This document shows, piece by piece, positions 8,848-36,763 of a DNA stretch of 39,707 nt (positions within the stretch are counted from its first letter, which is position 1; each line of letters begins with the position of its first letter). Origin of the DNA: Chrysochromulina tobinii (Eukaryota; Haptophyta; Prymnesiales; Chrysochromulinaceae). Location: assembly GCA_001275005.1 (NCBI GenBank), contig JWZX01002399.1:1-39707 (forward strand). The letters are read 5' to 3'. The notes under the pieces were generated by a model that did no database searches, was not told the origin of the DNA, and saw only the letters and a list, made by a program, of their open reading frames with translations. The translations under genes were made by a program, and so were the position numbers.

Positions 8848-11800
8848 TTACGCACCACCCTGGCCCTTGTAGAGGGTCGCAAGCAACGCTGCCCCCAGCT
8901 CCAGGCTGGAGTCGAGCGTGGCCTCGCCTGCAGTCATCTCGGCTGCAGAGCTACGGACCGCTCGCCCATCCTTCTTGTCGTCGTCGTCCTCGTCATTTTG
9001 ATCACCGACCGTGCCACTTCTGCCATCGCCGGCACACCCCTTGTCGCCCTCGTCGTAGTCGACTTCTACGACGACGCCACCAGCACCGCTGCTGTCAGCG
9101 CCGCCGCTCTCAGCGCCGCCGCTGCCGCCGCCGTCACACTTGTCTTCTACGACCACCGCGGCCTCGCCCGCCGCCTCGCCCTCCTCTGCCGCTGCCTCCA
9201 CCGCCTTCTCCATCACTTCATCGGCGGCCTCGACCACGGCCGTTACATCGACCGTTACAAAGTCCTCCGCAACCTCTTCCATGGCATCCTCCACCGCTGC
9301 CTTGGATGCCTCTTCCGCCGCGGCGCTCTCAACTGCCTCCTCCGCCTCCATCGCTACCGCCTCCACCTCCATCGCTGCCTCCTCTACCTCTATTGCAGCC
9401 TCCTCCTCCTCCATCACAGCCATTGCACGTCCCACTGCAAGCCCCGCCGAGTGCGTAGCCGTCGAGGCCGCGGCAACGGCTGGGGGGTTGGCCAAGGATT
9501 GCAGCATGGCCATCATAGGGCTGTGTCTGCCGTTGCCATCAAGTTCAGCGCCCGCCGCGGCACCAAAGGCAAGAGCGGACCCGAAGCCAGAAGCACTGCA
9601 GTTGCCGCCGCTGCCGCTGCCGCCGCTGCCGCCGCTGCCGCCGCTGCCGCCGCTGCCGCCGCTGCCGCCGCTGCCGCCGATGCCGCCGCTGCTGCCGCCG
9701 CAGCCAGTGCCGATGGAGATGCTGCAGTCGCCAAGAGCGGGGCCGTGGGTGGCAGTGGCGCCAAAAGCGGGCACGTGCATGCGAGCGCCGAGAGCACCTC
9801 CCATATTTGGAAGTGTCGTACTGCCGCGGAACGTGGGCCGACAAGCCGAGCGCCCCGCCGAGGCGCCCCCCGCGATGTCGTCATTCGTCTCGTCTTCGAG
9901 GTCACCAAAGGGGTACGGGCGGCGCCGTCCGGCGATGATGGTGTGGCCTTGGCCGCCGATGCCGCCACCGCCGCTGCCAAGGCTGCTGCCACCGCCGTCG
10001 CAGGCGCCGTCGTAGGCGCCATAGCCTCCATCGCCGCCGAGTCTGTTGTGGGTAGCCGAAGGCGTGTGGCGCTGCGCTTGGGGTGCTCGGGACGGCATCA
10101 CTAGAGCCCCAGCGCCGCCGTCCGCCCCGGCGCCGACGACGGCGTTCGCAGCCGTCTCGATGGCCAAAGCAGCAGCGGCGGTAGCGGCGGCAGCAGCGGC
10201 GGTAGCGGTGGTAGTGGCGGCAGTGGCGGCAGTGGCATTGGCCGCTGCGGTCACGGCCTGAGCACTCGCCTGAGGGCGGAAAGGAGGGGAGATGAGGCGG
10301 AGATGAGGCGGAGATGAGATGAGACGAGGGAGGCATCAGAGGCAATCAGAGGCAATCAGAGGCAATCAGAGGCTCTCGCCTGAGCGGCGGCGGCGGCGGC
10401 GGCGGCCTGACGGGCCACTTCGGCGCGCAGCCGCCCTTGCAGCTCGAGAAGCACAGTGCGCAGCGACGCCTCGTCGAGCGAGCTGCGCGCATACCTGATA
10501 AAGAGCGCAATCCGAGGTCATCAGAGATGACGAGTGCAATCATCAGAGCGCAATCCGAGGTCATCAGAGATGAAGAGCGCAATCCGAGGTCATCAGAGAT
10601 GAAGAGCGCAATCAGAGGTCATCAGAGATGAAGAGCGCAATCCGAGGTCATCAGAGAGGCCATCCGAAGCACTCAGAAGCCCTCGAAGGCACTCCGAGGC
10701 ACTCAGAAGCCCTCAGAGGCAAACAGCGGCACTCAGAGACCATCCGGACGCCATCCGACGCCATAGGAGGAAATCAGAGGCAATCAGCGGCACACCAGAT
10801 CAGACGCTCCGCCACTAGAGCGTAATCAGAGGCAATCAAAGGCATACCAGATCAGACGCTCCGCCACTAGAGCATACGCCTCCATTGAGCGCGTGCGAGC
10901 AGAGGGCCGCTCCACCTGCCATCAGAGGACACTCGGGGGATCATCAGTGGCAATCAGTGCCGAGGGCCGCTCCACCGGACCAATTAGTGGCACTCGGTGG
11001 CACTCAGTGGCACTCAGCGATTATCAGTGCCAATCAGTGCCACTCAGAGGCACACTCTATACCGGATCAAAATCGACAGCGGCGGAGAGATCAGCGGCGC
11101 GTCGGCACACGGACTGCGGCAGACCCGCGAGGCTCGCGAGTACGTCCGTCATGTACGCACCTGATGAAGGAGGCAATCAGTGGCTCATTAGTACTCATCA
11201 GAGCTCATCAGGCTGGCGAGTACGTCCGTCGTGTACGCACGACGACTCGTCACGCCATCGCACACGATGTGGGGGAAGCGCTGCGTGAAGCCGCCGCCGC
11301 CGCCGCCTCCGCCTCCGTTGCCCCCTCCTCCACCGCCACCAGTGCCGCCTCCGCCTCCGCCTCCGCTTCCGCCTCCGCCTCCGCCTCCGCCTCCGCCGCC
11401 GCCTCCGCCACGCTCGTCGTCGGAGGTTGCGAGCTTGAGAAGGCGCACCTGATAAAGGTTATCCGTAGCTGTGGGTGATCCTCGAGGGCATTCAATGACC
11501 AACGAAGGCAATCAATCAGCATCGAGGTGCATGCAAGACGTGTGCTTGAGGAGGGTGCACTCAATATAAGCATCGAGGTGCATGCAAGACGTGTGCTTGA
11601 GGAGGGCGCACGTTGCTCGGGTAGAGGTTTTTGAGGTTCGCTAGCCAGAGGTAGTGCGTCGCAAAGAGCGTGAACGTCGAAGGGGCGAGTGCGAGCTGCT
11701 CGGCCACGGCGAAGCTGCGAGGAAGGGAGCAATCAGACGTCAACAGAGGTCATCAGAGATGCACTAAGTGTGGTCATCAGCCCACCTGAGGGAGGCGATG

Positions 11801-14800
11801 AAGGGAGCAATCAGCCGTCATCAGAGGTCATCAGAGATGCGATGAGTGGTCATCAACTCACCTGAGGGAGGCGCCATCGGCATTGGAGGTGCCACGCCCG
11901 AGCTCGTCGACGAGCACGAGAGCTGGCCCGCCGAGATTGCGCAAGATATACGTGGTCTCGCGCATCTCGCATGCAAACGTCGAGCCATGCGCCTCAAGCG
12001 CGTCCGCAGCTCCAATGCGCGTGAAGACACGCTGTAGCAGGCCACGTAAACAGAGGCGATCAGAGACGATCAGAGGCGATCAGAGGACATCAGAAGTCAT
12101 CAAATTCAATCAATGGTCATCAGCCCTCGCCTGCAGCAGGGGCACCGTGGCCGCGTCGGCGGGCACGTGGCAGCCGATGTGGGCCAGTAGCACAACCAGA
12201 GCGGTCTGGCGCAGGTACGTCGACTTTCCCGCCATGTTGGGCCCCGTGATGATCTGCCGGGTCGCAATTAGGCAATTAGGCAATTAGGCAATTGGGCAAT
12301 TGGGCCATTAGGCCATTAGGCCATTAGGCCATTAGGCCATTAGCGATCTCAGGCGTGGCTGTCACCTGCAAGTTGGTCGCGTGCGTGATGGCGACGTCGT
12401 TCGGCGTGAGAGGCTGGCCGGGCTCCGCAAACCGCTCGAGGAGCGGGTGACGGCAGCGCTTGAGCACCAAAGGGGCGGCGTGTGCGATCTTGGGACGGCA
12501 GAACGGGCCGTTGCCTCCCCCCTTGTGCACAAAGACGGCGAAGGCGAGCATCACGTCGACGAGAGCGACTGACTCGCCTGGGGAAAGGGGCGCCCACACG
12601 CGCTAAGAGCCCATCATCAAACGCACTCACGCACTCAGCAGGCCATCAGAGGCCATCAGAGGCCATCAGAGGCCATCAGAGCTCATCAGGGGCCATCAGA
12701 GGCCAACAGAGGCCATCTGGGGCCATCTGGGGCCATCAGAGGCAATCAAGCGCGCTCAGAGCGATGCATACAAGCACGTACCCAGGCGGAAGACTAGGTG
12801 GAGCGAGGATCGTATCTCGCCGAGAAGCAATCAAGACAATCAGAGCGATGCATGCAAGCACGTACCCAGGCGGAAGACTAGGTGGAGCGAGGATCGTATC
12901 TCGCCGAGAAGCGCCGAGATCCGCGCCTCCGTCGAGAGGAGAATCTGCTGAATCATCTCTTGTGCGCGCGCCGAGAGCTGCGACGAGATCGCAGCGAGGT
13001 TGCAACGAGATTTCAAGAGGTCCCTCAGCCGCACTCAAGCGAACAACCAGGCGCATCATCATCAGGGGCGTTCATCAGCCGCAATCAATCTCGCCTGCAC
13101 GAGCTGATCCGTTGAGCAAGCCACCGTCTTCTTTGCTTGGGAAGCGATCTTGACGAAGCCCGCACGCTCGACCGTCTCGCGCTGCGCCACTGGCAGCGTG
13201 AGATGGTAGCCCCGCCGCTCAGTCCACACCAGCTTGAGGTCACTCAGCCCAAACTGCTCCGCATACCTGTGGGGAAGTGGTAGGGCGTCGTGGTGAGCAC
13301 CCGCATCACACCAGCTTGAGGTCACTCAGCCCCAATTGCTCCGCGTACCTGTGGGGAAGTGGTAGGGCGTCGTGGTGAGCACTCGCATGCTCAGGCCGCA
13401 CTTGCAAGCTCAGGCCGCACTGCTCAGCGTACGTGTCGCGTAGGTGCTCCATCTCGGTCGTCGAGTCGGTCAGCGTCTCTCGCGCCACGTCAATGAACGA
13501 GCAAACCTACGAGCGTCGTGGCGGGCACTTGAGCCATCAGTGATCATCAGTGAAAATCAGCGGCCATCCGTGGCCATCAGCGGCCATCAGCGGGACACTC
13601 ACCTTCGAGCGCACGGCGAAGAGGCACTCAAGCATCCGTTGGCTCGTCTGCTTGCGGAAGATGGCCTCGTCGTCAATGATGGCGTGGATGCGCGTGCAGA
13701 GCTCGTCGATCTCGTCGGAGGCGAGATTGCCCACGATGGCGCGCAGCAGCTGTGGAGAAGGGGGCAGGGAGGGCAGGGCGGATAGGGCAGGTAGGGCAGG
13801 GCAGGTAGAGGGCAGGGCAGGTAGAGGGCAGGGCAGGAATGGGGCAGGGCATGTAGAGGTCGGGGTTAGGAGGGCAGGTGGAGGTACTTCCGAGATCTGT
13901 CCGAGATTCCGTCCGAGATCGCACCTCGTTCGTGGGCGGCGCCTCCCCACTCGAGGTCATCAGGGAGGTCATCAGTGAGGTCATCAGGGAGGCCATCAGG
14001 GAGATCGCACCTCGTTCGTGGGCGGCGCCTCCCCACTCGAGGTGAGCGCGGCGGCGAGGCGCGGCGCCGCATGCAACGCCGTCTTGAGCTGGAGGACCGC
14101 GGAGATGCCAGCCTTGGCACGCGCGCAGCCGGTCGAGGTGGGGTTCGTCATGAAGAACTTGAGGAGCCGATCCGAGTCCGCAAAGGCGGGAAGCACCTGA
14201 TGAGGGATGCAATCAGAGGTCCTCAGAGGTCCTCAGAGGTCCTCAGAGGCAATCAGAGCTCATCAGAGGCCATCACCTTATGGGCGTCGACGAGGAGCTC
14301 GTCGCGCGCGAGCAGCTCGGAGACGCAATCGAGGCGCGCCGAGATCGTGTCCAGATCTGTCGAGGGCTGCAGCAACAGCGTCCGCAGGTATCGGCTGCCC
14401 GCGGCGGTCTTGCACTGCGCACACCGGGGTAGGCGCCGTGGTGAGCACTTGTATGCTCAGGGATATGGTCTGAGCCCCTCTCAGAGGCACTCAGAGGCAC
14501 TCAGAGGCATTCGGTGGGGCATGCCATCCTCCGATCCGCAGTGTCACCTGGTTGAGCGCGCCGAAGAGAGATGCCTTCGGATCGCCGGTGCGCAGGTTGC
14601 GAAGAAGCTCGAGGTTGGCGACGGTCGCCGGGTCGAGGAGCATCACGCCCTCGACGCTCCGGTACCTGTGGAAGAGAGGGCGCCGCGATGAGCACTCGCA
14701 TGCTTCCGACGCATGCAAAGGGCACGTGGGGAGGGTTGAGATCCGATGGCACGCAGAGAGGCACTCGAAGGGACACTCAGAGGGTGGACGGAGTGCGCAC

Positions 14801-15297
14801 TTGATCCGAAGGGTGCCCTTGACGAAGCTCGCGCCGTCGGACTGCTCGACGGCGTCGACGAGCGCGGCAAGGGCCGAGAGCGCCAGGTATTTGGACTTGA
14901 CGTCCGTCTCGAGCGCCTGCACGTGCGAGCGGTGCGAATAGTGTCGCACGTACCCGAGGCCCTTGATCTCGTTCCAGTTGCGACGGGGCACCTGGTCGCA
15001 GCGCGCGGCCGGGAACTCGGCCTCGGCGACGCGCGCGAGCACGCTCTGGGCGGACGAGGGTGGGAAGAGGATCTGGCGCGGGTTGTGCGACGCGAGCACC
15101 GACAGCGTGCGCGAGTACGCCGCGTCGTCGCAGAAGGAGCACAGCTCGATCGAGAAGTCCGAGAGCCGCAGGCACGCGAGGCCGACCTCGTAGGCGCGGT
15201 TCTCGCAGAGCGCGACAACCGAATCGAGCTCCGGCTCCTGAGCCGCGGCGCGCTCGTCCGCGCGAGCGAAGGGCTGCACGGCGTCGAAGCCGACCAT
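8848..15297 (-). CDS. MSH4: MSH4, meiotic MutS homologue, with long low-complexity C-terminal extension
   Basis: Meiosis-specific MutS homologue that with MSH5 stabilises recombination intermediates for crossover. Exons: 15297-14801, 14665-14548, 14414-14277, 14196-14011, 13749-13603, 13506-13433, 13266-13094/5, 13023-12866, 12577-12366, 12253-12131, 12031-11862, 11714-11612, 11448-11241, 11160-11063, 10915-10848, 10494-10380, 10269-8848. All joins keep phase except exon 7/8, where a GT-AG pair does not fit. Marks: [12 protein letters not shown] and [14 protein letters not shown] (connector), [11 protein letters not shown], Walker [20 protein letters not shown], Walker [13 protein letters not shown], and FATHY. 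It lacks a mismatch-recognition domain before the connector, as in MSH4. A Gly run of about 40 residues (exon 13) replaces the segment after FATHY. The final exon adds ~470 residues rich in Ala, Gly-Ser and Glu, giving ~1336 aa against the usual 800-940. The start at 15297 is the closest ATG to the domain; longer starts exist. Confidence 0.88.
9597..9690 (-). repeat. 9-bp GGS-coding array in the MSH4 tail
   Basis: About ten copies of a 9-bp unit (ccgctgccg on the plus strand) encode consecutive Gly-Gly-Ser triplets in the last MSH4 exon. The array is in frame. It is a flexible-linker-like segment that likely varies in length. Confidence 0.85.
10325..10870 (-). repeat. CTGAT-type decamer arrays in MSH4 introns 15 and 16
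   Basis: Tandem units around 10 bp, on the plus strand aatcagaggc, gtcatcagag or actcagaagc, fill the introns on both sides of exon 16. Read on the coding strand they are repeats of TCTGATTGCC or TCTGATGACC, each holding a CTGAT that matches a branch-site consensus. A 30-bp unit (gaagagcgcaatccgaggtc...) is repeated at 10500-10660. Confidence 0.85.
11293..11412 (-). repeat. GGA/GGC array encoding poly-Gly in MSH4 exon 13
   Basis: A run of GGC and GGA triplets with rare Ser, Thr and Asn codons, in the frame fixed by the flanking splice phases. It would give an almost pure glycine stretch in the ATPase C-terminal part of MSH4. Confidence 0.8.
11714..11870 (-). repeat. 76-bp tandem duplication including exon 11 end and donor
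   Basis: Two copies of GCCTCCCTCAG|GTGAG-type exon end plus following intron, spaced 76 bp (CACCTGAG at 11783 and 11859 on the plus strand). This yields two candidate donor sites for MSH4 intron 11: CTCAG|GTGAGT at 11862/61 and CTCAG|GTGGGC 76 bp downstream. Confidence 0.85.
12262..12345 (-). repeat. ATTAGGC/CCATTAGG array in MSH4 intron 9
   Basis: Tandem 9-bp units, on the plus strand caattaggc changing to ccattaggc. On the coding strand they read CCTAATTG and CCTAATGG. CTAAT is another good branch-site word, so this intron uses a different unit with the same property. Confidence 0.8.
12637..12750 (-). repeat. GGCCATCAGA decamer array in MSH4 intron 8
   Basis: Roughly eleven 10-bp units (ggccatcaga, with variants ggccatctgg) on the plus strand. 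On the coding strand they read TCTGATGGCC. Confidence 0.85.
12757..12912 (-). repeat. 84-bp duplication of exon 8 end plus donor in MSH4
   Basis: 12841-12912 (the true exon 8 end and start of its intron) is copied at 12757-12828 with only one or two changes. The copy carries the last ~45 bp of coding sequence and the GTACGTGC donor. Confidence 0.9.
13755..13862 (-). repeat. GGGCAGGTAGA array in MSH4 intron 4
   Basis: Units of 10-17 bp containing gggcaggtag. On the coding strand they read CTACCTGCCC and form a pyrimidine-rich tract leading to the CCACAG acceptor of exon 5. Confidence 0.75.
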
Positions 15298-15657
15298 CGG
15301 TACAGGGAGAGGAACACACAGGCGTCTTCGGCCCTTCGCGGGGCCGAAGCGCGGCGACTCTCCGCGGAGGCGCGCGCTCTGTCGACACGGCGCCGCAAAA
15401 GCGAGCATCTGCGACACGAAGATACATGACAAGCAACTCGCAGCTCCCATTCGGTCGGGTCTCGTTGTCCCTTTCCTGAATAAGTGGTCGGCGCCCATCA
15501 CAGGTGGCTCTCGCGATCGCCGCTCTCGCCCTAGCATCCGCAACCGTACGGTACTTAACTTTGTACGTATACACACAGCGCTTACGACACTGCGCTCTCA
15601 AGTCTCAACACCTCTTGTTTCCTCTCTGCTTTGCTGGTCTCCTCTCTCCGCTCTCTC
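15298..15657. other. Spacer upstream of MSH4, downstream of the LETM1-like gene
   Basis: Both neighbours are on the minus strand. The MSH4 frame stays open to about 15576, so the true start may lie in here. A pyrimidine-rich stretch and a short AT-rich spot around 15540-15575 could be promoter sequence. No other gene seen. Confidence 0.4.
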
Positions 15658-18779: not shown

Positions 18780-18953
18780 AGCGTGTGTGGTGTCTCTTTT
18801 CGGCAGGCGCCGCGAAATCCTCAAGATCCAGATCTCTCGCTGCGTCGAGGTGGTCAGAGGGTTTGAATGAGGGCTCCCGAGGCGCCGGCGCGACCGAGCT
18901 GCATGCATTGTGCCCATGCTTGCCATCCAGAACACCACACAACGTCGCCACAT

Positions 18954-18984
18954 GACTTGACTTGACTTGACTTGACTTGACTTG
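18954..18984. repeat. (GACTT)n pentamer array between divergent genes
   Basis: Six perfect copies of the pentamer (ttgac register) between the starts of the LETM1-like gene (18779, minus) and the DUF4116 gene (19079, plus). Same pentamer as at 5973-6062. Confidence 0.9.
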
Positions 18985-19078
18985 TCGAAGAGAGTCCCCC
19001 TAGGATACTACCAGCAAGAAGAGAGACGGGCCCGCCTCGCGATTTCTGTTCAGCTGCACCCAGCAGGCCGAATACGCG

Positions 19079-22103: not shown

Positions 22104-22232
22104 TTGCCTCTGTCATCAGAGGTCATCAGAGGTCATCAGAAGTCATCAGAGGTCATCAGAGGTCATCAGAGGTCATCAGAGGTCATCAGACGCCTGCCCT
22201 CGATGCCACGACGCATGCCACGACGCAGCTCC
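22060..22232. repeat. ATCAGAGGTC array inserted between two copies of the gene's 3' end
   Basis: Nine ~10-bp units (gtcatcagag) at 22112-22190 are flanked by two copies of cgcctgccctcgatgccacg (22063 and 22190), the codons of the last Cys cluster. The second copy has an extra catgccacgacg. On the plus strand the units read ATCAG, opposite to all introns of plus-strand genes here. Confidence 0.85.
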
Positions 22233-22257
22233 ACTCGTCCGCGCGGCCATCGAGTGA

Positions 22258-23155: not shown

Positions 23156-26100
23156 TCACGTGAAGACGTCTGTGACTACCAGCCGGAGGCGGTTGCGGAA
23201 GGCGAGCGTTCCCCACACGAGCACCTCCCGCGCTGCCTCGAAGCCCGCTATGTACTCGTCGTACCTGATGAGGGAGGCAATCGGAGGTCATCAGAGGTCA
23301 TCAGAGGTCATTGGAGGTCATCCTCGGCCAAAAAGGCGTCGTACCGGGCGAGCGCGCGCTCGACCTCCCGCGAGCGAAGCGTGTGCAAAGAATACTTGGG
23401 GTGTTCGTGCCCGTTCCGGTGCTCATCCCAATTCGTAACCGACGTCTCGATGGCGAGCCCTTCCCAGCCGGGCAGGCGCAGAGGCGGCGCCACGCTCGAG
23501 GTGAACACGAGGGGTGTGCCTGCATGCAACGCTTCGTACCTGATGAGGGAGGCAATCGGAGGTCATCAGAGGTCGTTGGAGGTCATCAGTGTGCCTGCAT
23601 GCAACGCCTCATACATGTTACGGCGCTCGGGCGTGTCGCCACGTGGCTCGACGGCGAACCGCGACGACGCGAGCAATCTCGTCGCGTTCTCGGCGTCGTA
23701 CTGGGCGCCCATGTGGTTGCTCAACTCGAGCGTCTCCCCTGTGCGCCACACGATCAGGGGTCATCAGAGGTCATCAGCGGTCATCAGTGGTCATCAGTGC
23801 GCCACACGATAAGCGGTCATCAGTGGTCATCCCAGGCGATCCGATCGCAATCCGATGGCAATCCGCGGCAGTCACCTGGGCGATCATACTCCCTGATTAC
23901 ACGGCAATCCGATCGCAATCCGATGGCAATCCGCGGCAGTCACCTGGGCGTAGCAGTTCCTTGAGCCACCCTCGGCCGCAGCACAGGCTGCCAACGAAGC
24001 CAAAGTCGCGCGCGCGCTCCGCCTGTCGCCTCGGGCGCGCGAGCGTCGTGCCGGGCACATAGTACGGGATGTGAACCTCTCGGTGCCAGTCACGCACCGC
24101 GCCTGAGGAGGGACGCACTCAAGAGGTCAACAAAGGCCATCAAGAGGCAATCAGAGGTCATCAGAACGTACCCGGCGGCGGCTCGGCGTCCGTCTCGAGG
24201 CACACGTAACGAATCTTAGGATGACGAAGGCAATCAGAGGTCATCAGAACGTACCCGGCGGCGGCTCGGCGTCCGTCTCGAGGCACACGTAACGAATCTT
24301 AGGATGACGCCAGAGCGTCGTGTACACGTCCTCGCCCGCGCCGATCGACCACGCCTGCTCGCCTATGTAAGGGCACTTGTGACGAGTCATCAGGTGCTTC
24401 TCGGGGTGTGTGTCAAAGTAAGGCCCCACCGATCGCATTGCCGCAAGCAACTTGCGCTCGAATCGGGCGGTGCACCTGATGAGGGAGGCCATCATGATGA
24501 TGAGTAAGGAAGTCATGATCTCAATCAGCGACCAAAAAGGCGATCGGTACAAATCCGACGCAATCAAGCGCCATCAAGCGCCATCAAGCGCCATCAAGCG
24601 CCATCAAGCGCCATCAAGCGCCATCCGACGCGTGCTCACCGACGCAATCAAGCGCCATCAAGCGCCATCAGCGCGTGCTCACAGATGCAATCAAGCGCCA
24701 TCAAGCGCCATCAGCGCGTGCTCACCGGAGGCATGAGCGTAGCTTGTGCCGCTTCGCATTCCACGACCAGCCGTGTGCCCAATGCCGGTTGAGGCACGCG
24801 GGCAGCACGAAAAAGTCCGCAAGCGCCGGGTCGGTGGTGGCCTCGAATGCGGCACGCAGATTCGACTCGACGTGCAGCTCCCACCTAATGAAGGGAGGCA
24901 ATCATGATGAGGGAGGCAATCCTGATGAGGGAGGCAATCATGAGCTCCCACCTGATGAAGTTGTGGCAATCATGATGAGGGAGGCGATCATGAGCCTCAA
25001 TCAGTGGCAGCTCTCACTCGAAGTTGTTGACGCCGCCGCCATCATTCGGGTGGCAGTTGGTCATGCCGAGCTCCCCAAGCTCGTACACGTACATGCGCAG
25101 CGTCCGCGTTGACGAAGCCGAGCCGCCGACACGCGCCGTGTTGGGCGTGCGCTCGTCCTCGGGTGCGACCGGCGCCGTCGTGAGCGCGAGGCGCGCCGGC
25201 CTGGGCGCCGGCAGCGCGGCCGACGGCTGGAACTCGCCGCCGACATCGCTCACGTACCCGCCCACGACGAGGCCGCTGCCGCCGCCCACGTAGCCGCCGA
25301 CGATGGATCCGCCGCCGGGGGCTCCGATGATCACATCGAGTGCTCCGAATCGGTCCTCAGCGAGACACGCGACATCCCTCACCTCGGACACGAGGGCCGC
25401 GTGCACTGCGAGCCATCCGAGAGCGATTAGAGAGCAATTAGAGTGCAATTAGAGAGCAATTATAGAGCGATTAGAGAGCGATTAGAGGTCCATTAGTGAG
25501 CCATTAGTGAGTGACCCGAGAGCAATCCGAGAGCAATCCAAGGCCATCAGAGGTCATCAGCATGCAATCACCTGCACGCATGCACGACTCATCTTCGAGG
25601 CCTTGCGTCCTCGAGTAATTGGCCGTTGAGGCGCCCTTGGGGTGTGTGAAGAGGCCAGCGTTCACGACGACGCACGCCGGGCTCGCGAGGAAGCGGCGCG
25701 CGGCGAATTTGCACCTGGGGATGAGGGGGAGGAAGAGGGGGGAGAGGAGGGGGGAGAGGAGGGAGGGGGGAGGAGGGAGGGAGGGGGGAGGGGGGAGGAG
25801 GGAGGAGGGGGGGGGCGAGGGGGGTGAGAGGCATCCGAGGGCATCAGAAGGCATTCGCGCATGCATGCGCACCAACAGGCGTTCACATCAACAGGCATTC
25901 ACATCAACAGGCATGCATGCGCACCAGGTCACGTCGACGCCCCAGTCAGTCCGCGCTTCGGGCCGGTAGAGCGACGAGAACACCTGTGGGGAAGGCGGAG
26001 GGCGCCCTGGTGAGCACACGTGCATGCCCACGTGGCCGGTAGAGAGCACTTGCATGCATACCTCGATCGCCACCCGTAGCTGGAGCAACGGAAGCATGAG

Positions 26101-27217
26101 TTCCACAAAGTCGGTCGCGCGCGTGCGGCAGCGCGGATGCGGCTTGAGCAAGTCCCAAATCGAGCCGATGATCGCGGGCTGCGCAATCAGCGCTCCGTGT
26201 CGCTGCGCCTCGTGCAAAAAGTGGGCCACGTAGCGCATCGGCGGGATGATGATGTCCTCATCGATCGACCAAATATGGGAGAACTCGAGCGCCCACGCCT
26301 TGCCATATGCGGACAGCGCGTTCGCGATGAAGCGCGACTTGACCTTCTCAGGATAGCTCACGTGGAAGCGCGAGCATCGCTTGTACCATGGCTGCTGAGC
26401 GTACCTGTGGGGGGGTAGTGGGCCGGGGGGGGGGCGCCGTGGTGAGCACTTACATGCACGCGTGTGGCTGGTACCACGGCTGCTCGCGTACCAGCTGTGG
26501 CTCGCGTCGTAGTGGGCGTAGAAGAAGGAGGCGTTACTCAGCCGCGAGATGGTTTCACACGTGGCCTGCACGTTGCTCGCCTGCCCGGTGGTCATCAGTG
26601 GTCATCAGTGGTCCTCAGCGGTCATCAGTGGTCATCAGTGGTCATCAGTGGTCATCAGCGGTCATCAGTGGTCATCAGTGGCCTGCACGTTGCTCGCCTG
26701 CCCGGTGGCCATCGCACACGATCAGTGGCCCTCAGCGGTCATGAGTGGTCTTCAGAGGTCATCAGTGGTCATCAGTGGTCATCAGTGGTCATCAGTGGTC
26801 ATCAGTGGTCATCAGTGGTCTTCAGAGGTCATCAGTGGTCATCAACGGTCCTCAGTGGTCCTCAGAGGTCCTCAGTGGTTCTCAGCGGTCATCAGCAGTC
26901 ATCAGTAGTCATCAGCCGCCTGCACGCAGCTCGCCTGCTTCTGGCCCACGACCATGAAGATGAGTACATTCATCAAAGGTCATCAGTGGTCATCAGTAGT
27001 CATCAGCTCGCCTGCTTCTGGCCCACGACCATGAAGATGAGTACATGGAAGAACGGCACCGCCTCCGGCATCGGATCCATCGGAGACGCACCTGTGGGGA
27101 AGCGCGAGCGCCGTGGTGAGCACGTGCATGCTGGGCGAGCACTCGGTTCGCTTCGTCGGATCCATCGGAGACGCACTAAATGCGAGCACTTGCTCCGAGC
27201 CCGACGACGCCGACGGG

Positions 27218-27254
<37 letters not shown>

Positions 27255-28080: not shown

Positions 28081-28445
28081 TGTGTTGAGGGAAATTTGCG
28101 TTTCCGTTGTGCCGTCCACCTGGTTCCGTCGCGCAGCGCGCAGACTCTGCTGTTTGGCAGTTGTGAAGCCCCGTGTGAACGTTAACACGACACTCGCTTT
28201 TGCCCGCTCGGAATACACGCACCTTACATGACCCCATACGAGACACGGAGCATGCGCGCGCTCGCAGCGTGGAGGATGGAGTGGGCGTCGGCGCAAGCGT
28301 CGCCGTCGGCGGCTTGATGTTAGTAGATGGCCGTGGAGATGTTAGCGAGCAAGCGCCATAGCGGCCAAGCGCGCCTACATAAACTCAAGTGGACACACAC
28401 TACCAAATACCGCGCTCAAACGTGTCCACGCACGTCGACGGTTTC
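28081..28445. other. Spacer upstream of the GT fusion gene
   Basis: Likely promoter and leader of the GT fusion gene and 3' end of the upstream methyltransferase gene, both on the minus strand. No gene or repeat seen. Confidence 0.5.
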
Positions 28446-30546
28446 CTAACGGCCAGCCCACTCCAATAGTGGCCCCACACCAAGCCAGGGGCTCGGTAGA
28501 GACCCCACAGGCGCCCATGCCGGCATGCGCGGCCGGCCCGTCGCCGCGCACTTGTCGACCTCGCCTCTAGCCTCGCTTGTAGCGCCTCCGACCTTGCCCC
28601 CGACCACCTTACCGACCACCGTGGACTCGTTGCAATACCAGCGTTGCGTCGCATACATCAGATGGCCCCGCTTGATACGGCGCTCGGCGGCGGCGAGGAA
28701 GGTACCGAGGTCGTCGGGCCGCGAGACGGCGCACAGACCATGCCGCGGGTGGCTGAGCGGGTGATGGTGCACGAGCGCCGTATCGAGCGCCAAGGGCGGG
28801 CTCAGCCAGCGGTGCACTGTCGAGTTGGCGCTGAGGCAGAGCTCATGCCACAAGGCGGCGAGGGCGGCCGCGCTTTCCGTCTCCGGCCGGAAGTAGAGGA
28901 CGCCAACCGACTTCTCCTTCTGGACCTCCACGTAATGGTGGGGGCGCACGTTCACAGCACGATGCACGTGCCGCCACGCGCCGTCTCGAGCGCCGTCTCG
29001 CGCGTCGTCCTGATCACCGCGGCTCGCGACGAGGAGAGCGTCGAGCTCAGCTGGGGTGAAGCGCGTCCTCGTGAGCAGCGCCCGTGACAGCGCGGTGGGA
29101 ACGCCCGGGGCGGCGCCCGAGGCCGGGGTGCCCGGTACGGCGCCTTCGTCGAGGAGCAGCTTCCAAGGGCAGTGTGGTTTCGTCAGGCCCGCAGGGCGTG
29201 GCATGCGTGTCCACGAGGTGCCGATGCGCTGCTGCGGGCCCTGTGCAAAGGCGGGCCAGGGGCGAGCCTCGATCGACACATCAGCAAGCGCCGTGCCGTG
29301 CGCGTTCGGAAGCAGTAGCCCGATGCCAAACATGGGTAGGAAGGATGAGTGCTGCTCCGTGAAGGTGTGAACGCGGCTCGGGAGGACGCGAGAGAGCAGG
29401 TGCATCCAGAAGAGGGGGACGCCGCCAAGGTAGAAGGGGCGCATCGTCGGGTTGAGGGGCAGCTTAAGCGTCGTCGTGTCCTGGATGTCATGGAAAAGGA
29501 TGGAGCGGCACCTGCATGATGCATGCATGTACGAATTAGTACATTTAAGCACTCGGGATGATGGGACGTCAGGAGCGAGCAGTTGCAAATTGAGCAAGTA
29601 ACAGTTGCTTGCATGCATAGGTGCGACCCGGGGCAATCAGCGGTGCAAGCCGATGCAATCAGAAGTGCAATCAGAAGGGCAATCAGCGGTGCAAGCCGGT
29701 GCAATCAGAAGTGCAATCCAGCACAATCAGCGGTGCAATCAGGTACAATCAGAGGTGCAATCCGGTGCAATAAACGGTGCATCGCTGCATCATCCAATCA
29801 GAGCACCTCGGCGCCAGACTCTCATAGTCGGTGCGCACACCCATGTAGTCGTGGTCGGCATCGATGAAGCACAGGTCAAAGAGCCGGGCAACGTGGGCAC
29901 GCTGCTGCGGCTGCTGCGGCTGCAGATGCGGCTGCTGTTCCAGAAGCATGTCGAAGGCGTTGCGCGCCATGAAGCGCATGTTGAGTCGCTCGAGCAGATC
30001 CGCCGTGTACTTGGCCACGTGTTCCCTGGAGCTATCGACCGCGAGGCCATGGAAGGCTTTGTTCGTCATCCGTGAGAGATAGGCGCCGACTGTGCATGCG
30101 GTCCATGCGGTGTGCACGCCGAGCTCGACATAGCTCAGTACCTCGCCGTGCGCAGTGGCTTCGATGAGCGCAGAAGCGAGCTGTTTTGGATCTTGCCATA
30201 GCCCAGCACGGCGATTCGAGACCATGTGCACTGCCGCATCGCCATATAGACGCTCTCGACGGGTGTCAGGCACGAGGCCGATGGCGCCGATGGCGCTTGT
30301 GAGCCACGTATGGTTCGAGAGCTTGTTGCACGAGGCTGCCAGGATGCCGCCGACACCCGCACACAAGCGATTGTCGGTGGAATCAGCTATCGACTCGCAG
30401 CTGAGGTGAACTGGGGCACTGCAACGCATTGATAAATAGGGGTTCTGGAGCAGCTCCACGAACCCCTTGCACTCCCACGGGTAGATTATTGCAGCGCGCC
30501 AGCATCCGACCACAAAAACGACTACCAAGATGAGAAAATTGAAGTG
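28446..30546 (-). CDS. Membrane-anchored class I methyltransferase-like protein
   Basis: Exon 1 is 30546-29807 and exon 2 29511-28446, joined in phase through AG|GTGC to read APRCRSILFHDI. Exon 1 holds a Rossmann methyltransferase: SYVELGVHTAWTACTVGAYL (SAM-binding motif I region), HGLAVDSSREHV (acidic residue of motif II) and FDLCFIDADHDYMGV (motif IV). Exon 2 continues the fold with FHDIQDTT. About 250 further residues (WRHVHRAVNVRPHHYVEVQ and LSPPLALDTALVHHHP) are not recognised. A hydrophobic stretch FLILVVVFVVGCW at the N-terminus suggests a signal anchor. No ATG is in frame before it: a TAG lies at 30547-30549 with an acceptor-like TTAG|CAC, so a short first coding exon is probably missing from this model; the first internal ATG is 30429. 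The substrate is unknown; neighbouring glycan genes suggest sugar methylation. Confidence 0.68.
29633..29795 (-). repeat. GGTGCAATCAG array in the methyltransferase intron
   Basis: Ten- and twelve-base units such as gtgcaatcag and aagtgcaatcag fill most of the intron. On the coding strand they read CTGATTGCAC. Confidence 0.85.
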
Positions 30547-30712
30547 CTAACCGAGTTCCTGTGGAAGATGCATGCGGCTCTGTTGGAGTTAGCGTGACAC
30601 AAAGTGGATTCGCCTTGCTGCGTGTTGCCGAGTGGCAATTGAACGTGAATGTGAACAGGATGTTGATGAAGAAGGCAGCCGGGAGTTCTCGGGGCTCCCC
30701 AGGAGACCGATC

Positions 30713-33700
30713 ATGTCGACGCCGAGTAGTCTTCTAACGCCCGAGGAGATGGTGGAGGCGACTGGGCTGCTGCGTGCCATGCGCAACTTCCGCACGGCGG
30801 CCAGCAAGCCCATGCTCGCGTACCCGAAACCGCTGGACGCGCCTCACGGGCTGCCCTTCAGTGATGAGAATGGCACGGTGGACGGAGGAGGCATCGGCAC
30901 TCGCGCCGGCTTCAAATGCGGTTGGGAGTTCGGCATCGCCCAGTGCGCGGTGCTCTTTCTGCCGCGGGGACTGCCCTTGGATGGCGAGTGGGCCACTGCG
31001 GTAGACTGGGCCAACCGCGCCATCAACGCAAACCTCACGAAACTTATGCCCGGCCGCGGCCGTAACAGCTCCTTCAATCCTCTACGCTACGTCGCGTTCA
31101 ACCCAGCAGTCATCGATGAGCACAACGTGCTCATCCGTGCGGCGCCAGACAAGCTTTCCATTAACATGGATCGAGAGTGGTCGCCTGGCCTCGAGTACTT
31201 TGTGCACCTGCATGACGGTCAGCTCAAGGCCGCCTTCCTCGGCAGGTATGATTGCCGCCGATGGCCTCGGATGGCCGCGGATTGCGCCGCATTGCACAAA
31301 TGGTTGAGGTGCTACCACCGATTGCCGCAAGCACATATGATTGAGGTGCCACTGATCGCCACAAACAAAATGATGATCGCCTCAAACACATATGATTGTG
31401 GTACTGATCGCCATGACCGGCCGTCCACGGCAGTGACCCACGCGGCATCTGGCTCGACCGTTACACTCTGCTCGCCGTCTACAATCGTGCGCACACTCCG
31501 GACGTGCTCGGGTTCCGATTCGGCAAGGTGAGGGTGCTCATGTACGCACGCAACCTATCGCAAGGCGTTACCGGTACGGAGGTGCGCTTGCGACTTGCCG
31601 GCGCTCGCAATTGGGAGAAGAATTGGAGCCCATTTGAATGCCCGATGCATGCGGAGTGCGCGGGAATGCTCTACCTGAGCTACGCGCTCAGCCCCGAGCA
31701 CGTCGTGATCTCGTGCGAGCTCGCCTCGGGCAACTGCCAACGCGCATACAATACCTCGTCTGCGGCCGTGTGGGAAGGCGTCAACGACCGGTGAGAGCTT
31801 GGGCGGCCTCTGATGGCCTCTGATGGCCTCTGATGGCCTCTGATGACCATTGACGTCCTCTGATGACATCAGATGACCTCTGATGGCCTCACTGAAGGCC
31901 TCAACTGTTTGCATCTTTGGTTGGCTCCCTCATAAGGATATTTGATCACCCGCGCCTCTCGACACCACCGGTGCTCGTGCGAGATCGAGATCGAGATCGA
32001 GATCGAGATCGAGATCGAGATCGAGATCAGGCTCGAGGCCGTTACCTCGCGATTGGCCATTACCGAAGCGGGCATGCCTTGTATTCGCACTTCTGGTACG
32101 AGATGCAGGTAAGTGCCCTACGCATGACCCACTGATTACTTGCTTCATCAGGTGAGTGCCCTACGCATGGCCAATGATGGCTTGCTTCATCAGGTGAGTG
32201 CCCTACGCATGGCCCACTGATGGCATGCATTCATCGAGTTCCCTCCTCATCGTCCCCTATGGCCTATGAGTGCATACCCATCTGGGATTGCATGCAGGCG
32301 GAGCCGCCCTTTGCGATCCTCCGCACGTCCCGACCGTTTCGATTCTTCTCGGGCGGGCGCACAATGGAACGCCTGCCGCCCTGGCCCAACATGAACCTGA
32401 GCGCCCGAGACGGCGCCCATGACGACGCCCGAGACGGCGCCCGAGATGGCGCCCGAGATCACGGCCGAGGTCATAGTCTTCCCAAAGAGAGCGCCGGCTA
32501 CTCCACGACCATGGGCTATCACAAGGAGCAGTGCGTCTGATTGCGCTCGATTGCGCTCGATTGCGTCCCTATTTCAAGGAGCAGTGCGTCTGATTGCGTC
32601 TGATTGCGTCTGATTGCGTCTGATTGCGTCTGATTGCGCTCGATTGCGTCCCTATTTCAAGGAGCAGTGCGTCTTGGGCTCGTTGAGCCTGATTGCGGCT
32701 GATTGTGGTCGATTGCGTCCGATTGCGAATCTGTCTGCGTCGTTGTCTCGTCCTAATTTGGATGCGTCCGACGCCCTCCCCTTCAGGTACGTTTCGGGTC
32801 TTTACCTTTCCTCAGACCGTCAACGGCTCGTCTTGAGCTACGGAGTGGGCGACAGAGGGGCGATGCGCACCGCCGTGAGCCTCGCGCCAGACTGCCTACG
32901 TGTGATTGCCCGACGTAATCAGACGCAATCAGACGTAATCACGCCGTGAGCCTCGCGCCAGACTGCCTTCGTGTGATTACGTCTGAGTGCGCCGCAGTGA
33001 GCCTTGAGCCAGCGATCGACAGACTGATTGCGTCTGAGAGCGTCTGAGTGCACCTCTGAGTGCACCTCTGAGTGCACCTCTGATTGCCTCCCTCATCAGG
33101 TGAGGGTCGATCAAGCGCTCGCGATGCTCAACGACGCGGGCGACGCGACGCAGCTCTACCGGTCGTGCCTCGCGACACGCCCCAGGGGCAGCGCATACTG
33201 CGACGAGGTCGGCTGCGACCGGGGACAGTCCTCCTCCGACGGCCCGACGTTAGTTCTGTGCGGAAGCTGCCCTGTGTGATTGCCGCGAATCGCCTCCGAT
33301 CGCCCCCTAGTTGCCTCCCTCATCACTGTGATTGCCGCGAATCGCCTCCGATCGCCCCCTAATTGCCTCCCTCATCACTGTGATTGCCGCGAATCGCCTC
33401 CGATCGCCCCCTAATTGCCTCCCTCATCACCGAGGGCAGTCCTCCGCCGACGGACCGACGGGAGTCCTGTGCGGCGGGGAGGTGCCCTCATTCTATCCCT
33501 CATGCCAACTGTGACGGCGTCGGATTGCATGGCTGACGGCGTCGGATTGCATGGCTGATGGCGTCGGATTGCATGGCTGACGGCGTCGGATTGCATGGCT
33601 GACGGCGTCGGATTGCATGGCTGACGGCGTCGGAATGCATGGCTGATGGCGTCGGAATGCATGGCTGATGGCGTCGCGGATGGGCTCCCTCATCAGGTGC

Positions 33701-33930
33701 GGCACGACGGCCTCGAAGTTCTCTGCTGCGATGGCCACTAATTGCCACCGAGTGTGTCCTTCATCAGGTGCGGCACGATGGCCCCCAAGTACCCGTACAA
33801 TTACCACGGCGACCGGGCCGTCGAGATGGCCGCGATGCTCGAGGAGCGCCGGGAGCTCAAGCACCCGTCGGAGGTGGCGCGCAGCCGTCTGGACGGCACG
33901 ATCGCACGATTGGAAGGGCTTGCTATGTAA
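30713..33930 (+). CDS. GH130-like beta-propeller glycosidase/phosphorylase family protein
   Basis: Seven exons, all in phase: 30713-31245, 31434-31790, 31937-32108, 32298-32530, 32787-32874, 33100-33257, 33768-33930; 567 aa. Features resembling GH130 and related mannoside-phosphorylase or transferase proteins: RYVAFNPAVIDEHNVLIRAA, then LMYARNLSQ, NWEKNWSPFEC, LYLSYALSPEHVVISCEL, GRYLAIGHYRSGHALYSHFWYEM with PPFAILRTSRPFRF, and YVSGLYLSSDRQRLVLSYGVGD. Together they suggest a five-bladed propeller, although catalytic residues cannot be assigned by eye. Exon 3 includes seven Arg-Asp pairs from a GAGATC repeat, and exon 4 a short ARDGA repeat, both in probable loops. The start at 30713 (MSTPSSLLTPEEM) is the first in-frame ATG; the frame is open 5' of it, so an upstream exon is possible. 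Transcribed divergently from the methyltransferase gene. Confidence 0.7.
31977..32031 (+). repeat. (GAGATC)n array encoding Arg-Asp pairs
   Basis: Eight or so copies of the hexamer gagatc in exon 3, encoding RDRDRD. In frame within the predicted propeller protein. Confidence 0.92.
32518..32750 (+). repeat. TCTGATTGCG arrays with copies of the exon 4 end
   Basis: Units gtctgattgc and gctcgattgc fill the intron. The exon 4 end caaggagca|gtgcgtc recurs at about 32574-32590 and 32657-32673, each with the donor GTGCGTC. Confidence 0.9.
33265..33500 (+). repeat. Repeated CCTCCCTCATCA blocks and copy of the exon 6 end
   Basis: Three ~55-bp units (tgattgccgcgaatcgcctc through cctccctcatcac) at 33278-33430, followed at 33430-33487 by a diverged copy of the exon 6 end (GCAGTCCTCCGCCGACGG vs ACAGTCCTCCTCCGACGG). 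Confidence 0.88.
33512..33680 (+). repeat. 22-bp minisatellite in the last intron of the GH130-like gene
   Basis: Seven to eight units of ggcgtcggattgcatggctg with ac/at at the junction, so each has CTGAC or CTGAT on the coding strand. Confidence 0.92.
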
Positions 33931-34022
33931 TCTCGCTATGGAAGGCTCGATCGACCGATTGGAAGGGCTTGCCATGTGATCTCGCTATGGAAGGCTCGAT
34001 CGACCGATTGGAAGGGCTGCAT
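33895..34022 (+). repeat. Tandem copies of the gene's last codons
   Basis: The final coding bases (cgattggaagggcttgctat and the stop) are repeated twice downstream in ~57-bp units containing atctcgctatggaaggctcg. The real stop is the TAA at 33928. Confidence 0.88.
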
Positions 34023-34639
34023 ATAACTGCCAAAAAAGGAAAGCGGTGCGGCGCGCGCGCGCGGAGTTGTGGAAGGACTCAATTTGGATTTGAAGGGACG
34101 GTGGGCGCCTGTTGCAGGCGCATGTCGCTGAGCGTCCAGTGCGTCCAAAGGAGGAACAACGGAATCCTTCGGCGGATATCGCCATCATGCAATACAAGCT
34201 CCGACCGTTTCGAAATAGTATTTTGTGTTTTCAGAGAACCTATTCGATTACCTGCTGTTGAATATAACCATGACAGTTGACACTCCTGCATACTGTATGT
34301 TCAGACGAGAGGATCAGCAATCACCAGGCTATTTATGGTATGGTAGAGATCCCCGCCGTCGGGCACGTAAAGGCTCTCCGACAGCGGGGCACGCACAAAT
34401 GCACATCTCCCCACCCCGAGTTCAGCGCCGCCCGCATCATGCTTTATGGTATGGTAGAGATCCCCGCCGTCGGGCACGTAAAGGCTCTCCGACAGCGGCA
34501 CGCACATCTCCCCACCCCCAGGTCAGCGCCGCCCGCATCAGGCTTTATGGTATGGTAGAGCGTCGGGCACGTAAGCTCGCCGACAGCGGCTGTACTTAGG
34601 CGAGTCTGTGCTCTTCGAGCCAATCGAGGGTCGCGACAT
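34023..34639. repeat. Spacer with ~107-bp tandem repeat
   Basis: Between convergent 3' ends. From about 34331 a unit starting tatggtatggtagagatccc and including cgtcgggcacgtaaaggctc is present twice (34335 and 34442) and a third, shortened copy begins near 34545. No gene seen; open frames across it are by-products of the repeat. Confidence 0.8.
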
Positions 34640-36763
34640 CTAGCCGCGCATCGCGACTCCAAGGACGTGCTGCTTGAGCTGTATCCAGTCGTCCGCCGTC
34701 CGCTGGTGGCTGTCCCGCAGCTGGGGGTTGGCGCCGGCGAGCAGCAGCTGCTGGACGATGCGCGTTTCGCCTGCGAAGCATGCGACCATGAGTGCCGTAA
34801 TACCTAGGCTTTGCTGCGCGTTGACGTTCGCTCGTGCAGCGAGGAGCACCTGATGAAGGATGCAATCAAGAGGTGTCATCAGAGATCATCAGAGGTCATC
34901 AGGTGTCATTGAGCATCGAGAAGAACCTCCACACCATCAGAGGTCATCACAGGCAAGGTATCCTCGAGCAGCGAGGAGCACCTCCACAACTGCACTGCGC
35001 CCCGCAGCAGCTGCGAACATGAGCATCGTGCGACCCGTGGAATCTCTGCCGTCCACATCCCCACCTGCCCAGATCCAGTCGCGGACCCGAACCGCATTGC
35101 CCACTTGGGCAGCCTCGATCAGCTCGTTGGGTATGGCGGTCGCGACACGTGACGCGCCATAGGGATCCGTGTCAAGCTGCCACACGCTTGTCATGCCCAG
35201 CATCCGCCGCACGCTTTCCATGTTAGGCGACTGCGGCATGGAAGCTGCGGACAGGCCCATATTAGGCAGGCGGCTCGGCCCATCATCCCTGATTTGGGAC
35301 ACGTCGGGCACGTCCATATCAAGCATGCCCACGAGAGTCTGAAAGTCATCCCTCATTTGGGACGCGTCGGGCACGCCCATATCAGGGACGCCCACGAGAG
35401 TCTGAAAGTCATCCCTCATTTGGGACGCGTCGGGCACGCCCATATCAGGGACGCCCACGAGAGTCTGAAAGTCATCCCTCATTTGCGCGTCGGGCACGCC
35501 CATATTAGGGACGCCCACGAGAGTCCTGAAGTGGTGCTCCCTAATATGGGAGAAGTGGCGCTCGAGCCGCACCTCCGCCGCGAGAGGGATCGGAGATCTG
35601 GACGAGATCGGAGTGCTGGACGAGATCGGACGAGATCGGACGAGATCGGTTGAGATCGTATGCGATCGGACGCGATCGGACGCGATCGGACGAGATCGGA
35701 TGAGATCGGGCGAGATCGGACTGCTGGACGAGAGTCCGGACGAGTGACCGGACAAAGGAACCGCTCCGGACGAGGCGGGGCTGGAAGAGGGGGACGCGAG
35801 GCTCTTGACACGCACACCCTGGATGCTTCGTTCGGGATGCGCACTTGCCATTTTAGGCAACTCATCCGCCGAAATCACCTTGAGGCGCCCGGCGTGCACT
35901 TGCATCAGTTGAGCGTGCCGATGGCGCACCTGTGGAGGGTCGGGCGCCGCAGTGAGCACTTGCAAGGGGCGCCGGAGTCGGGCACTTGCATGCAGGAGTT
36001 GAGCGTGACAATGACTCATAAGGGCGCCGGAGTCGGGCACTTGCATGCAGGAGTTGAGCGTGACAATGACTCGTACCGAGTTCTCCGTGCGCCCAGGCAG
36101 AATCTCCGCGATCTTGCGCCATTGCTTGCCGAGGCGGGCAGCCGCCTCAAGGAGAAGGGCGTCCTCCCGAGGCATGAACGAGAAGCGCGCACTCGGAACC
36201 CCCGGCGCCTCCTCCTCCTTGACCTTCGCCTTCGCCTTCTTTGCCTTCTCCTCAGTCTTCTTTTTCAACGTCATCTCCGCTGCCTCCTGCTCCTTGAGCG
36301 CCTTGAGGTCGAACTCGCCGGCTGCGGGCGCCTTGGACATGACCACCGACGCGGGGTCCGGCGACTGGAGCACCTGCTTGAAGCCTTCCGCCGCCTCGCG
36401 ACAGATCGACTTGGCCGATCCGCTACTTCCCGTGTCGCCCTTGCGCTTGAAGGACCCCGGGTTGGAGGACCCGGGGCTGGCAAGGGACCCGGGGCTGGCT
36501 AGACCCAGGCACTCCTCTTCCATTGGCGTGCACCTTTGGTTCATCAATCCTCGCCCGGTTGCGGCCGCCTCCTCGCGCGCGGCCGAGGCCGCCACCCATG
36601 CCGCCGCCTCCGCCTCTAGTTCCAGCTGCTCGGCCAACACCGCGGCCGCACGCGCCGTCGCGATCACTTCCGCCTTCATGCTCGCATCCATGCTAGCATC
36701 CATGCTCGCATTCAGCGTGGCCTGGAGCTGCTCGCGGCCGGTGGGCGTGCCCGGCTCGGCCAT
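34640..36763 (-). CDS. Myb/SANT-domain protein with C-terminal ankyrin repeats
   Basis: Three exons in phase: 36763-36077, 35929-34982, 34849-34640; 614 aa. The start is the ATG at 36763 (MAEPGTPTGREQ). Residues ~55-75 and 155-175 are charged and helical; a Lys/Glu-rich segment (KKKTEEKAKKAKAKVKEEE) is nuclear-localisation-like. A single Myb/SANT repeat follows across the first intron: REDALLLEAAARLGKQWRKI, AEILPGRTENS and VRHRHAQL, with two of the three spaced Trp-type positions replaced by hydrophobics. The middle has four 21-residue repeats (FQTLVGVPDMGVPDASQMRD). The C-terminus has two to three ankyrin repeats: PNELIEAAQVGNAVRVRDWI, then GRTMLMFAAAAGRSAVVEVL and GITALMVACFAGETRIVQQL. Likely a nuclear DNA- or chromatin-binding protein with a protein-interaction end. 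Confidence 0.85.
35294..35530 (-). repeat. 63-bp coding repeats
   Basis: Four units, each with cgggcacgcccatatcaggg and gagagtctgaaagtcatccc on the plus strand, encode the 21-residue block with LVGVPDMGVPD. The two middle units are almost identical and the outer ones diverged. Confidence 0.92.
35595..35735 (-). repeat. CGAGATCGGA decamer array in coding sequence
   Basis: Some twelve units of the decamer cgagatcgga or cgcgatcgga. As ten is not a multiple of three, the encoded peptide cycles through PISSDLIRSR-like variants with period ten residues per three units. Confidence 0.9.

What the first reader, a model, noticed from the sequence alone, without database searches (positions are those of the whole stretch)
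10270..36076. Introns whose 5' end is a copy of the downstream exon's 5' end: target-site-like duplications spliced at the copy boundaries
In at least ten introns of MSH4, the GT fusion gene, the GH130-like gene and the Myb-ankyrin gene, the intron starts with the same sequence as the next exon. Clear cases: intron 11240-11161 (28 of 30 bases), 27176-27092 (21 identical), 23614-23540 (24 of 26), 34981-34850 (18 of 19), 11611-11449, 13432-13267, 26491-26405 and 25017-24885; shorter ones (6-10 bp) at 10847-10495, 33258-33767 and 32875-33099. The donor GT is the start of copy one, the CAG comes from the inserted part, and exon sequence resumes with copy two. This is the expected product of insertion with target-site duplication (introner model) or of tandem exon-segment duplication. 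It explains why donors here often read GTRCG rather than GTAAGT. Seeing so many partly intact copies in one window suggests ongoing or recent intron gain.
Basis: partly seen in the sequence, partly recalled or inferred. Interest (0 to 1): 0.93.

Follow-up and report, generated by a model that had tools for sequence, protein, structure and literature searches.

The report
Introns born with long exon copies
In this unnamed eukaryotic genome many introns look newly made: a short piece carrying an intron's 3' end sits in an exon beside a duplicated stretch of that exon, and the duplicate supplies the new intron's start, which makes the question of how introns arise open to direct test.

Summary
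Two window genes and a Lon gene on another contig, spliced by hand, give open frames that align with relatives at 40 of 42 junctions (two lay outside the alignment). Of these 42 introns, 9 begin with a copy of the next exon's start (score >=8), against 3 of 1722 swapped pairs; 0 of 20000 permutations reach the observed sum.

Two unrelated insert families share the pattern. Family A (...GATTGCCTCCCTCATCAG): 4141 near-matches in 53 Mb, control 0; 43 of 75 sampled sites carry a copy, against 10 of 1500 swapped. Family B: 2031, control 3; 10 of 23 sites against 6 of 460. In 24 clean family A cases copies are 13-42 bp, 12 perfect. A Lon paralogue in the same bin shows an empty site.

This is introner-like intron birth, but with long variable duplications, no detectable inverted repeats, and inserts resembling others on the same contig. 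I favour break repair copying nearby intron 3' ends over a cut-and-paste transposon; that step is inferred. No cDNA was available.

The parts
11161..11240 (-). MSH4 intron; copy one 11240-11210 (29 of 31), insert 11209-11161 (family A, ends TTCATCAG), copy two 11160-11130
27092..27176 (-). Glycosyltransferase-gene intron; copy one 27176-27156 (21 bp), insert 27155-27092 (family B, ends TTCCCCACAG), copy two 27091-27071
23540..23614 (-). Glycosyltransferase-gene intron; copy one 23614-23589 (24 of 26), insert 23588-23540 (family A), copy two 23539-23514
   Evidence: a DNA search with the joined exons found only the window itself
34850..34981 (-). Myb-ankyrin gene intron; copy one 34981-34963 (18 of 19), copy two 34849-34831; junction inside an ankyrin repeat
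11449..11611 (-). MSH4 intron, imperfect copy (anchored gapped score 10)
13267..13432 (-). MSH4 intron, imperfect copy (24 bases, score 9), plus an 82-bp insert-free tandem duplication of 3' splice site and exon start (13388-13307 and 13306-13225)
26405..26491 (-). Glycosyltransferase-gene intron, gapped copy (score 13), family B insert
24885..25017 (-). Glycosyltransferase-gene intron, weak copy (11 bases, score 8)
23265..23344 (-).
10495..10847 (-). MSH4 intron; only 6 bases at the donor (weak), but the upstream exon end is duplicated inside it; junction not covered by the relatives' alignment
33258..33767 (+). Intron claimed by reader; 6 bases at donor, 23-base imperfect copy of the next exon start at 33697
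32875..33099 (+). Intron claimed by reader; 5 consecutive bases at donor, weak
13915..14043 (-). Donor-side duplication in MSH4: 43 bp of exon end plus intron start repeated with 43 bp of filler that does not end in CAG
24145..24309 (-). Donor-side tandem duplication (82-bp copies, period 83) of exon end plus intron start, 1-base filler
12756..12912 (-). Donor-side duplication in MSH4, 73-bp copies with an 11-base filler

Best explanation
New introns arise here by insertion of a short module that holds an intron's 3' end (putative branch point, pyrimidine stretch, AG) into an exon, together with a long direct duplication of the exon at the insertion point. If the duplicated stretch begins with GT (or GC), copy one supplies the 5' splice site, the insert supplies the 3' splice site, and removal restores the old mRNA. 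Shown: dispersed insert families, the copies, junctions consistent with relatives, and one empty site in a paralogue. Inferred: the duplication comes from a staggered break or similar repair event in which the missing patch is filled in and the insert is copied from another, often nearby, intron, rather than from cut-and-paste transposition; selection then keeps the events whose boundaries splice cleanly.
For: Copy excess over swapped pairs in protein-checked introns (9 of 42 vs 3 of 1722; 0 of 20000 permutations), family A (43 of 75 vs 10 of 1500) and family B (10 of 23 vs 6 of 460). TTGCCTCCCTCATCAG is followed by GT in 726 of 1074 exact occurrences. Copy lengths vary: 13-42 bp, median 22.5, in 24 clean cases; 38 of all 40 are 13-43 bp. 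Empty site in the Lon paralogue L131. Relatives with uninterrupted frames at compared junctions. Inserts on one contig are more alike than inserts on different contigs (11 of 319 pairs share >=18 bases vs 115 of 16357; 0 of 3000 label shuffles); three Lon introns at different exon sites share a 25-base insert stretch. Of 11 exon-end duplications listed, the fillers mostly do not end in CAG, or there is none; these lie where the insert end is not under splice selection.
Against: Microhomology at the copy-one/insert junction, expected of template switching, was not demonstrated once loci of the same contig were excluded (p 0.05-0.19). In 5 of the 11 duplications seen at 20 non-GT occurrences the copy still starts within 3 bases of the CAG, and one exon-end filler (Lon 3257) does end in CATCAG, which hints at an intrinsic 3' end rather than selection alone. 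Thousands of dispersed near-copies with a constant 3' end look like a mobile family. Same-contig likeness could come from later gene conversion. Donor-side duplications could be a separate process. A first impression that copy and insert lengths trade off (rho -0.52, p 0.0017) did not survive removal of arrays and doubtful cases (rho -0.23, p 0.28, n 24). No cDNA, strain comparison or organism name was available.
Confidence: 0.52

Rival explanations
1. [quoted passage not shown]
For: Dispersed families A and B; insert supplies AG and the copy supplies GT, an arrangement described for introners in PMC9860276 (passages).
Against: Copies of 13-42 bp, variable, against 3-9 bp in that paper; no excess of terminal inverted repeats (6 vs 4.6 expected); insert 5' ends vary; same-contig likeness of inserts.
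Confidence: 0.16
2. Target-primed reverse transcription (LINE-like) of the 3' part of an excised intron RNA: fixed 3' end at AG, variable 5' truncation, variable target duplication, sense orientation.
For: Constant CAG end and variable 5' end of inserts; copies starting within 3 bases of CAG at 5 of 11 duplications at non-GT sites; long variable duplications. Within the spans of the four cited genes, 16 of 16 family A and 9 of 9 family B motif hits lie on the sense strand (positions, gene spans by eye; B hit 25187 lies in an exon and looks like chance).
Against: Exon-end duplications mostly have fillers without CAG ends; no reverse transcriptase was sought; constant CAG can come from splice selection and from sampling by a CAG-ending motif; sense orientation can come from selection too.
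Confidence: 0.2
3. Tandem duplication alone: existing 3' splice site plus exon start, or an exon segment, is duplicated by slippage or unequal exchange, giving nested AG-GT units.
For: Near insert-free 82-83 bp tandem duplications (13432 acceptor side, 24254), head-to-tail arrays such as L036, L046, L047, and copies lying directly after an intron-like 3' end in 10 of 40 cases.
Against: For Lon intron 2782 and other single cases the insert is a dispersed module absent from the exon, and a paralogue shows the site without any intron.
Confidence: 0.08
4. Chance similarity driven by donor consensus and GT-starting exons.
Against: Swapped-pair controls with the same donors and exon starts.
Confidence: 0.02

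Closest known systems
Introners (Gozashti et al. 2022, PMC9860276; passages read)
   Same: Dispersed similar introns at new sites, splice site recruited from a target duplication; families reported in a Chrysochromulina MAG among others
   Different: Here duplications are 13-42 bp in clean cases and variable, not 3-9 bp; no inverted repeats detected; inserts locally related
Introns gained at staggered breaks in Daphnia (PMC4202315; passages read)
   Same: Direct repeat of adjacent exon at the far end of the new intron, variable length
   Different: There 4-12 bp repeats; here long copies and recurrent insert families with a ready 3' splice site
Amoebophrya introner elements (PMC7789003; passages read)
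   Same: Direct repeats at intron borders, introners spreading
   Different: There 3-5 nt direct repeats, 8-20 nt inverted repeats and non-canonical splice sites; GT/GC-AG here
Direct repeats near splice sites (Rogers and Bendich 2025, PMC11782384; abstract and outline read)
   Same: Repeats of 4-30 bp (mean 11.4) at intron borders read as insertion footprints
   Different: The abstract does not describe an insert family with donor recruitment
Patch-mediated break repair in rice (Vaughn and Bennetzen 2014; paper not held, known through a passage of review PMC7407515)
   Same: Insertions that form tandem duplications, with some inserts from within 200 bp of the break
   Different: Not tied to intron birth in the passage read

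Membership tests
Introner | Many similar introns dispersed through the genome | tested here: met
   Family A 4141 vs control 0, family B 2031 vs control 3; that each is an intron was not tested
Introner | Precise insertion that leaves mRNA unchanged (most families) | tested here: met
   For the introns examined only: junction alignments, paralogue empty site; no cDNA
Introner | Short target-site duplication of 3-9 bp (in families that have one) | tested here: not met
   13-42 bp in 24 clean cases; cases were chosen at score >=12, so shorter duplications would be missed
Introner | Terminal inverted repeats (in families that have them) | tested here: inconclusive
   No excess over internal positions in 37 cases; internal CTGAT repeats limit the test
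Introner | Presence/absence between strains | not testable with these tools
   No strain genomes; only relatives' proteins and one paralogue
Staggered-break (DSBR) intron gain | Direct repeats of variable length flanking the new intron | tested here: met
Staggered-break (DSBR) intron gain | Microhomology or filler signature at junctions | tested here: inconclusive
   Microhomology p 0.05-0.19; fillers of varied ends at exon-end duplications
DNA-transposon MITE | Related autonomous transposase | not tested
   No search was made
LINE-type retroposition | Reverse transcriptase partner, RNA-templated insert | not tested
   No search was made

The most novel reading that the evidence does not exclude
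Introns in this lineage multiply by a repair-based contagion: breaks in exons are mended with a patch copied from the 3' end of a neighbouring intron, and the duplicated exon patch itself becomes the intron's 5' part. Intron birth would then need no transposon at all.
Probability: 0.35. Interest if true: 0.88.

Novelty: new variant of a known kind. Interest (0 to 1): 0.72.

Why it matters
How spliceosomal introns arise is a long-standing question because new introns rarely keep traces of their birth. Here half of the sampled copies are still perfect (20 of 40) and the insert motifs number in the thousands, so duplication length, insert source, boundary choice and splice-site recruitment can be measured statistically. 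If the repair reading is right, intron invasion does not require a transposase.

Tried and rejected
Annotation-free repeat scan (14-mers, 21 sources): no excess at the exact AG/GT boundary (7 against 8; 24 against 16 within two bases). Microhomology: a first script gave a strong signal, but overlapping loci of one contig caused it; corrected, it is weak. Terminal inverted repeats: null. A second or intron-less copy of the glycosyltransferase junction at 23614: none found. Naming the organism: 3 of 3 protein searches gave no named close relative; haptophyte-like is only my impression. Paper searches used 9 of 10. 'Introner' with 'haptophyte' and 'intron gain' gave 2 papers, 'introner' with 'Chrysochromulina' gave 2. 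In the listings, abstracts and passages I saw, PMC11782384 reports border repeats up to 30 bp, but none describes insert families with duplications of 13-42 bp; only open-access papers are held. Nucleosome-turn spacing as a cause of the 75-85 bp period was considered and not tested.

Rows dropped: tandem repeats of one exon start (84 to 75 hits); among the 43 with copies, a few are arrays or doubtful (first L047 row, L076, L103) and were kept in that count; 16 of 40 cases removed; two loci overlapping others left out of the similarity test, and family B loci not included in it; 5 family B motif hits without a recognised 3' splice site dropped, and two sites counted twice among the 23.
Full report
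What was checked. The window is contig C1257 of an unnamed 53.15 Mb assembly of 2253 contigs. MSH4 on the minus strand has 16 introns and a 1063-residue open frame (the start is arbitrary). The glycosyltransferase fusion gene has 12 introns and 990 residues. A Lon protease gene on contig C289 (locus L068), chosen because it holds a cluster of inserts, has 14 modelled introns (its 3' end was not modelled).

Splice points. Junctions were compared with related proteins. For MSH4, the 14 of 16 junctions that fall inside the alignment line up with relatives of 46-77% identity; several relatives are partial or lose the alignment at some junctions (P0003, P0006, P0007, P0008, P0009). The best relative, P0001, is an uninterrupted 1080-residue frame (longest contig 13.8 kb) and runs through all 14. 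P0005 seems to read straight through an intron of its own, which suggests that such entries are plain reading frames of unspliced DNA; it is continuous at 13 of our sites. For the glycosyltransferase, P0043 (69% identity) is continuous across all 12; its 3.3 kb contig could be cDNA. For Lon, P0047 (66%) is continuous across the 14 displayed, and the intron at 2782 lies inside the conserved ALLE/VLDP-QN stretch, which two prokaryote-type proteins (P0049, P0054) and a plant Lon (P0102) also span. The Myb-ankyrin junction at 34981 lies in an ankyrin repeat that is broken by stops when unspliced. There is no cDNA.

Is the similarity real? For the 42 introns of these three genes, each intron start was compared with its own next exon start and with those of the other 41. 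At score 8 or more: 9 of 42 own, 3 of 1722 swapped; at 12 or more: 5 against 0. The summed own score was reached by none of 20000 permutations. The mirror comparison (intron end with upstream exon end) gave 0 of 42 at 8 or more, though 4 of 42 against 11 of 1722 at 6 or more. A copy of the exon start anywhere in the intron (score 12 or more) was found in 10 of 42 own pairs against 0 of 1722; a copy of the exon end in 7 of 42 against 0 (all). So the effect is strong but concerns a minority of introns in these genes.

Genome-wide. The family A 3' end GATTGCCTCCCTCATCAGGT occurs 4141 times with up to three mismatches, the reversed control 0 times. The exact motif TTGCCTCCCTCATCAG is followed by GT 726 times, by another base than G 127 times, by G and not T 221 times: 68% GT. 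Sixty loci were fetched by this motif alone, from the first part of the listing, partly chosen for clusters of hits. Of 75 non-redundant occurrences, 43 have a copy of the downstream sequence at a GT or GC upstream (score 10 or more) against 10 of 1500 swapped pairs and 0 of 75 with reversed exon starts. Family B (AAGTGCTCACCACGGCGCC before a CCCCACAG-type end) has 2031 matches with up to two mismatches against 3. In twenty fetched loci, 10 of 23 occurrences have a copy (score 12 or more) against 6 of 460, and 18 of 23 exons start with GT (two sites are counted twice in the 23).

Anatomy. In 40 family A cases (score 12 or more), copies are 13 to 43 bp in 38 and 57 and 77 bp in two, and 20 of 40 are perfect. 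Removing arrays, copies that contain the insert motif, long periods, a low-identity case and copies that directly follow an intron-like 3' end leaves 24: copies 13-42 bp (median 22.5), inserts median 50.5, intron length median 75, 12 perfect. A negative correlation of copy and insert length in the wider set (-0.52) is not significant in the clean set (-0.23, p 0.28). Inserts contain repeated CTGAT motifs, which resemble branch points (recalled consensus, not tested). Two non-GT cases, L052 and L067, appear to use the opposite arrangement, with the donor in the insert and the acceptor AG at the end of the copy; this is my reading of the letters and was not tested.

Filled and empty sites. A Lon paralogue on C952 of the same bin (locus L131) has an uninterrupted frame across the 2782 and 2643 sites; aligned DNA shows the plain sequence where C289 Lon carries the 70-bp insertion made of a 28-bp copy and a 42-bp insert. 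C952 could belong to another organism in the bin. No second copy of the glycosyltransferase junction at 23614 was found.

Mechanism. Against a classical introner transposon: long variable duplications, variable insert 5' ends, no inverted-repeat excess (9 of 37 against 8.3 expected; 6 against 4.6), and inserts that resemble those on the same contig (11 of 319 pairs share 18 or more bases against 115 of 16357; 0 of 3000 shuffles, a stricter version), although gene conversion could also cause that. The Lon gene shows three introns at different sites with the same 25-base insert stretch. Of the 11 exon-end duplications listed (at most three rows an intron; one is a simple AGC repeat), one filler ends in CATCAG (Lon 3257) and the others do not or are absent, so the constant CAG of exonic inserts may owe something to selection. 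In favour of an element with a real 3' end: among 20 non-GT occurrences, 11 have a duplication and 5 of these start within three bases of CAG. Template switching predicts microhomology; I did not establish it. I therefore rank break repair with a copied patch first, RNA-templated insertion second and a transposon third, with modest confidence.

Known work. Introner duplications of 3-9 bp and the recruitment of a splice site from the duplication are described in PMC9860276 (passages); Daphnia repeats of 4-12 bp in PMC4202315 (passages); Amoebophrya repeats of 3-5 nt in PMC7789003 (passages); border repeats of 4-30 bp in PMC11782384 (abstract). A review of intron-gain mechanisms was read in passages (PMC3443670), as was a review of break repair that summarises the rice study (PMC7407515). 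For small tandem duplications made at break ends, only the abstract and outline of PMC8355091 were read. The present case is a variant of known intron gain, not a new kind.

Noticed in passing
window 678-796 (minus strand, Na/Ca exchanger frame 195-2156): A 40-bp copy pair with a 39-bp family-A-like insert whose end reads CTCATGAG rather than CTCATCAG; by eye the junction shares TCAT with the exon.
   Followed up: partly
L036, L046, L047: Head-to-tail arrays of copy plus insert, with joints reading CAG|GT, which resemble recursive-splicing points (resemblance recalled, not tested).
   Followed up: no
window 33270-33430: A three-copy repeat of 52-bp period inside an intron of the plus-strand gene.
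   Followed up: no
L019 around 5510: A third intron-like repeat of TTGACTTGACC type beside duplicated exon-like sequence; may be another insert family.
   Followed up: no
window 11280-11400: Long glycine-coding GGC/GGA run inside an MSH4 exon, absent from the relatives that cover it.
   Followed up: no
window 34330-34620: Direct repeats of about 107 bp containing TTTATGGTATGGTAGAG, outside the modelled exons (by eye).
   Followed up: no
L131 (C952:13340-13600): Second Lon gene without introns at the two tested sites, beside a 14-intron Lon in the same bin.
   Followed up: partly
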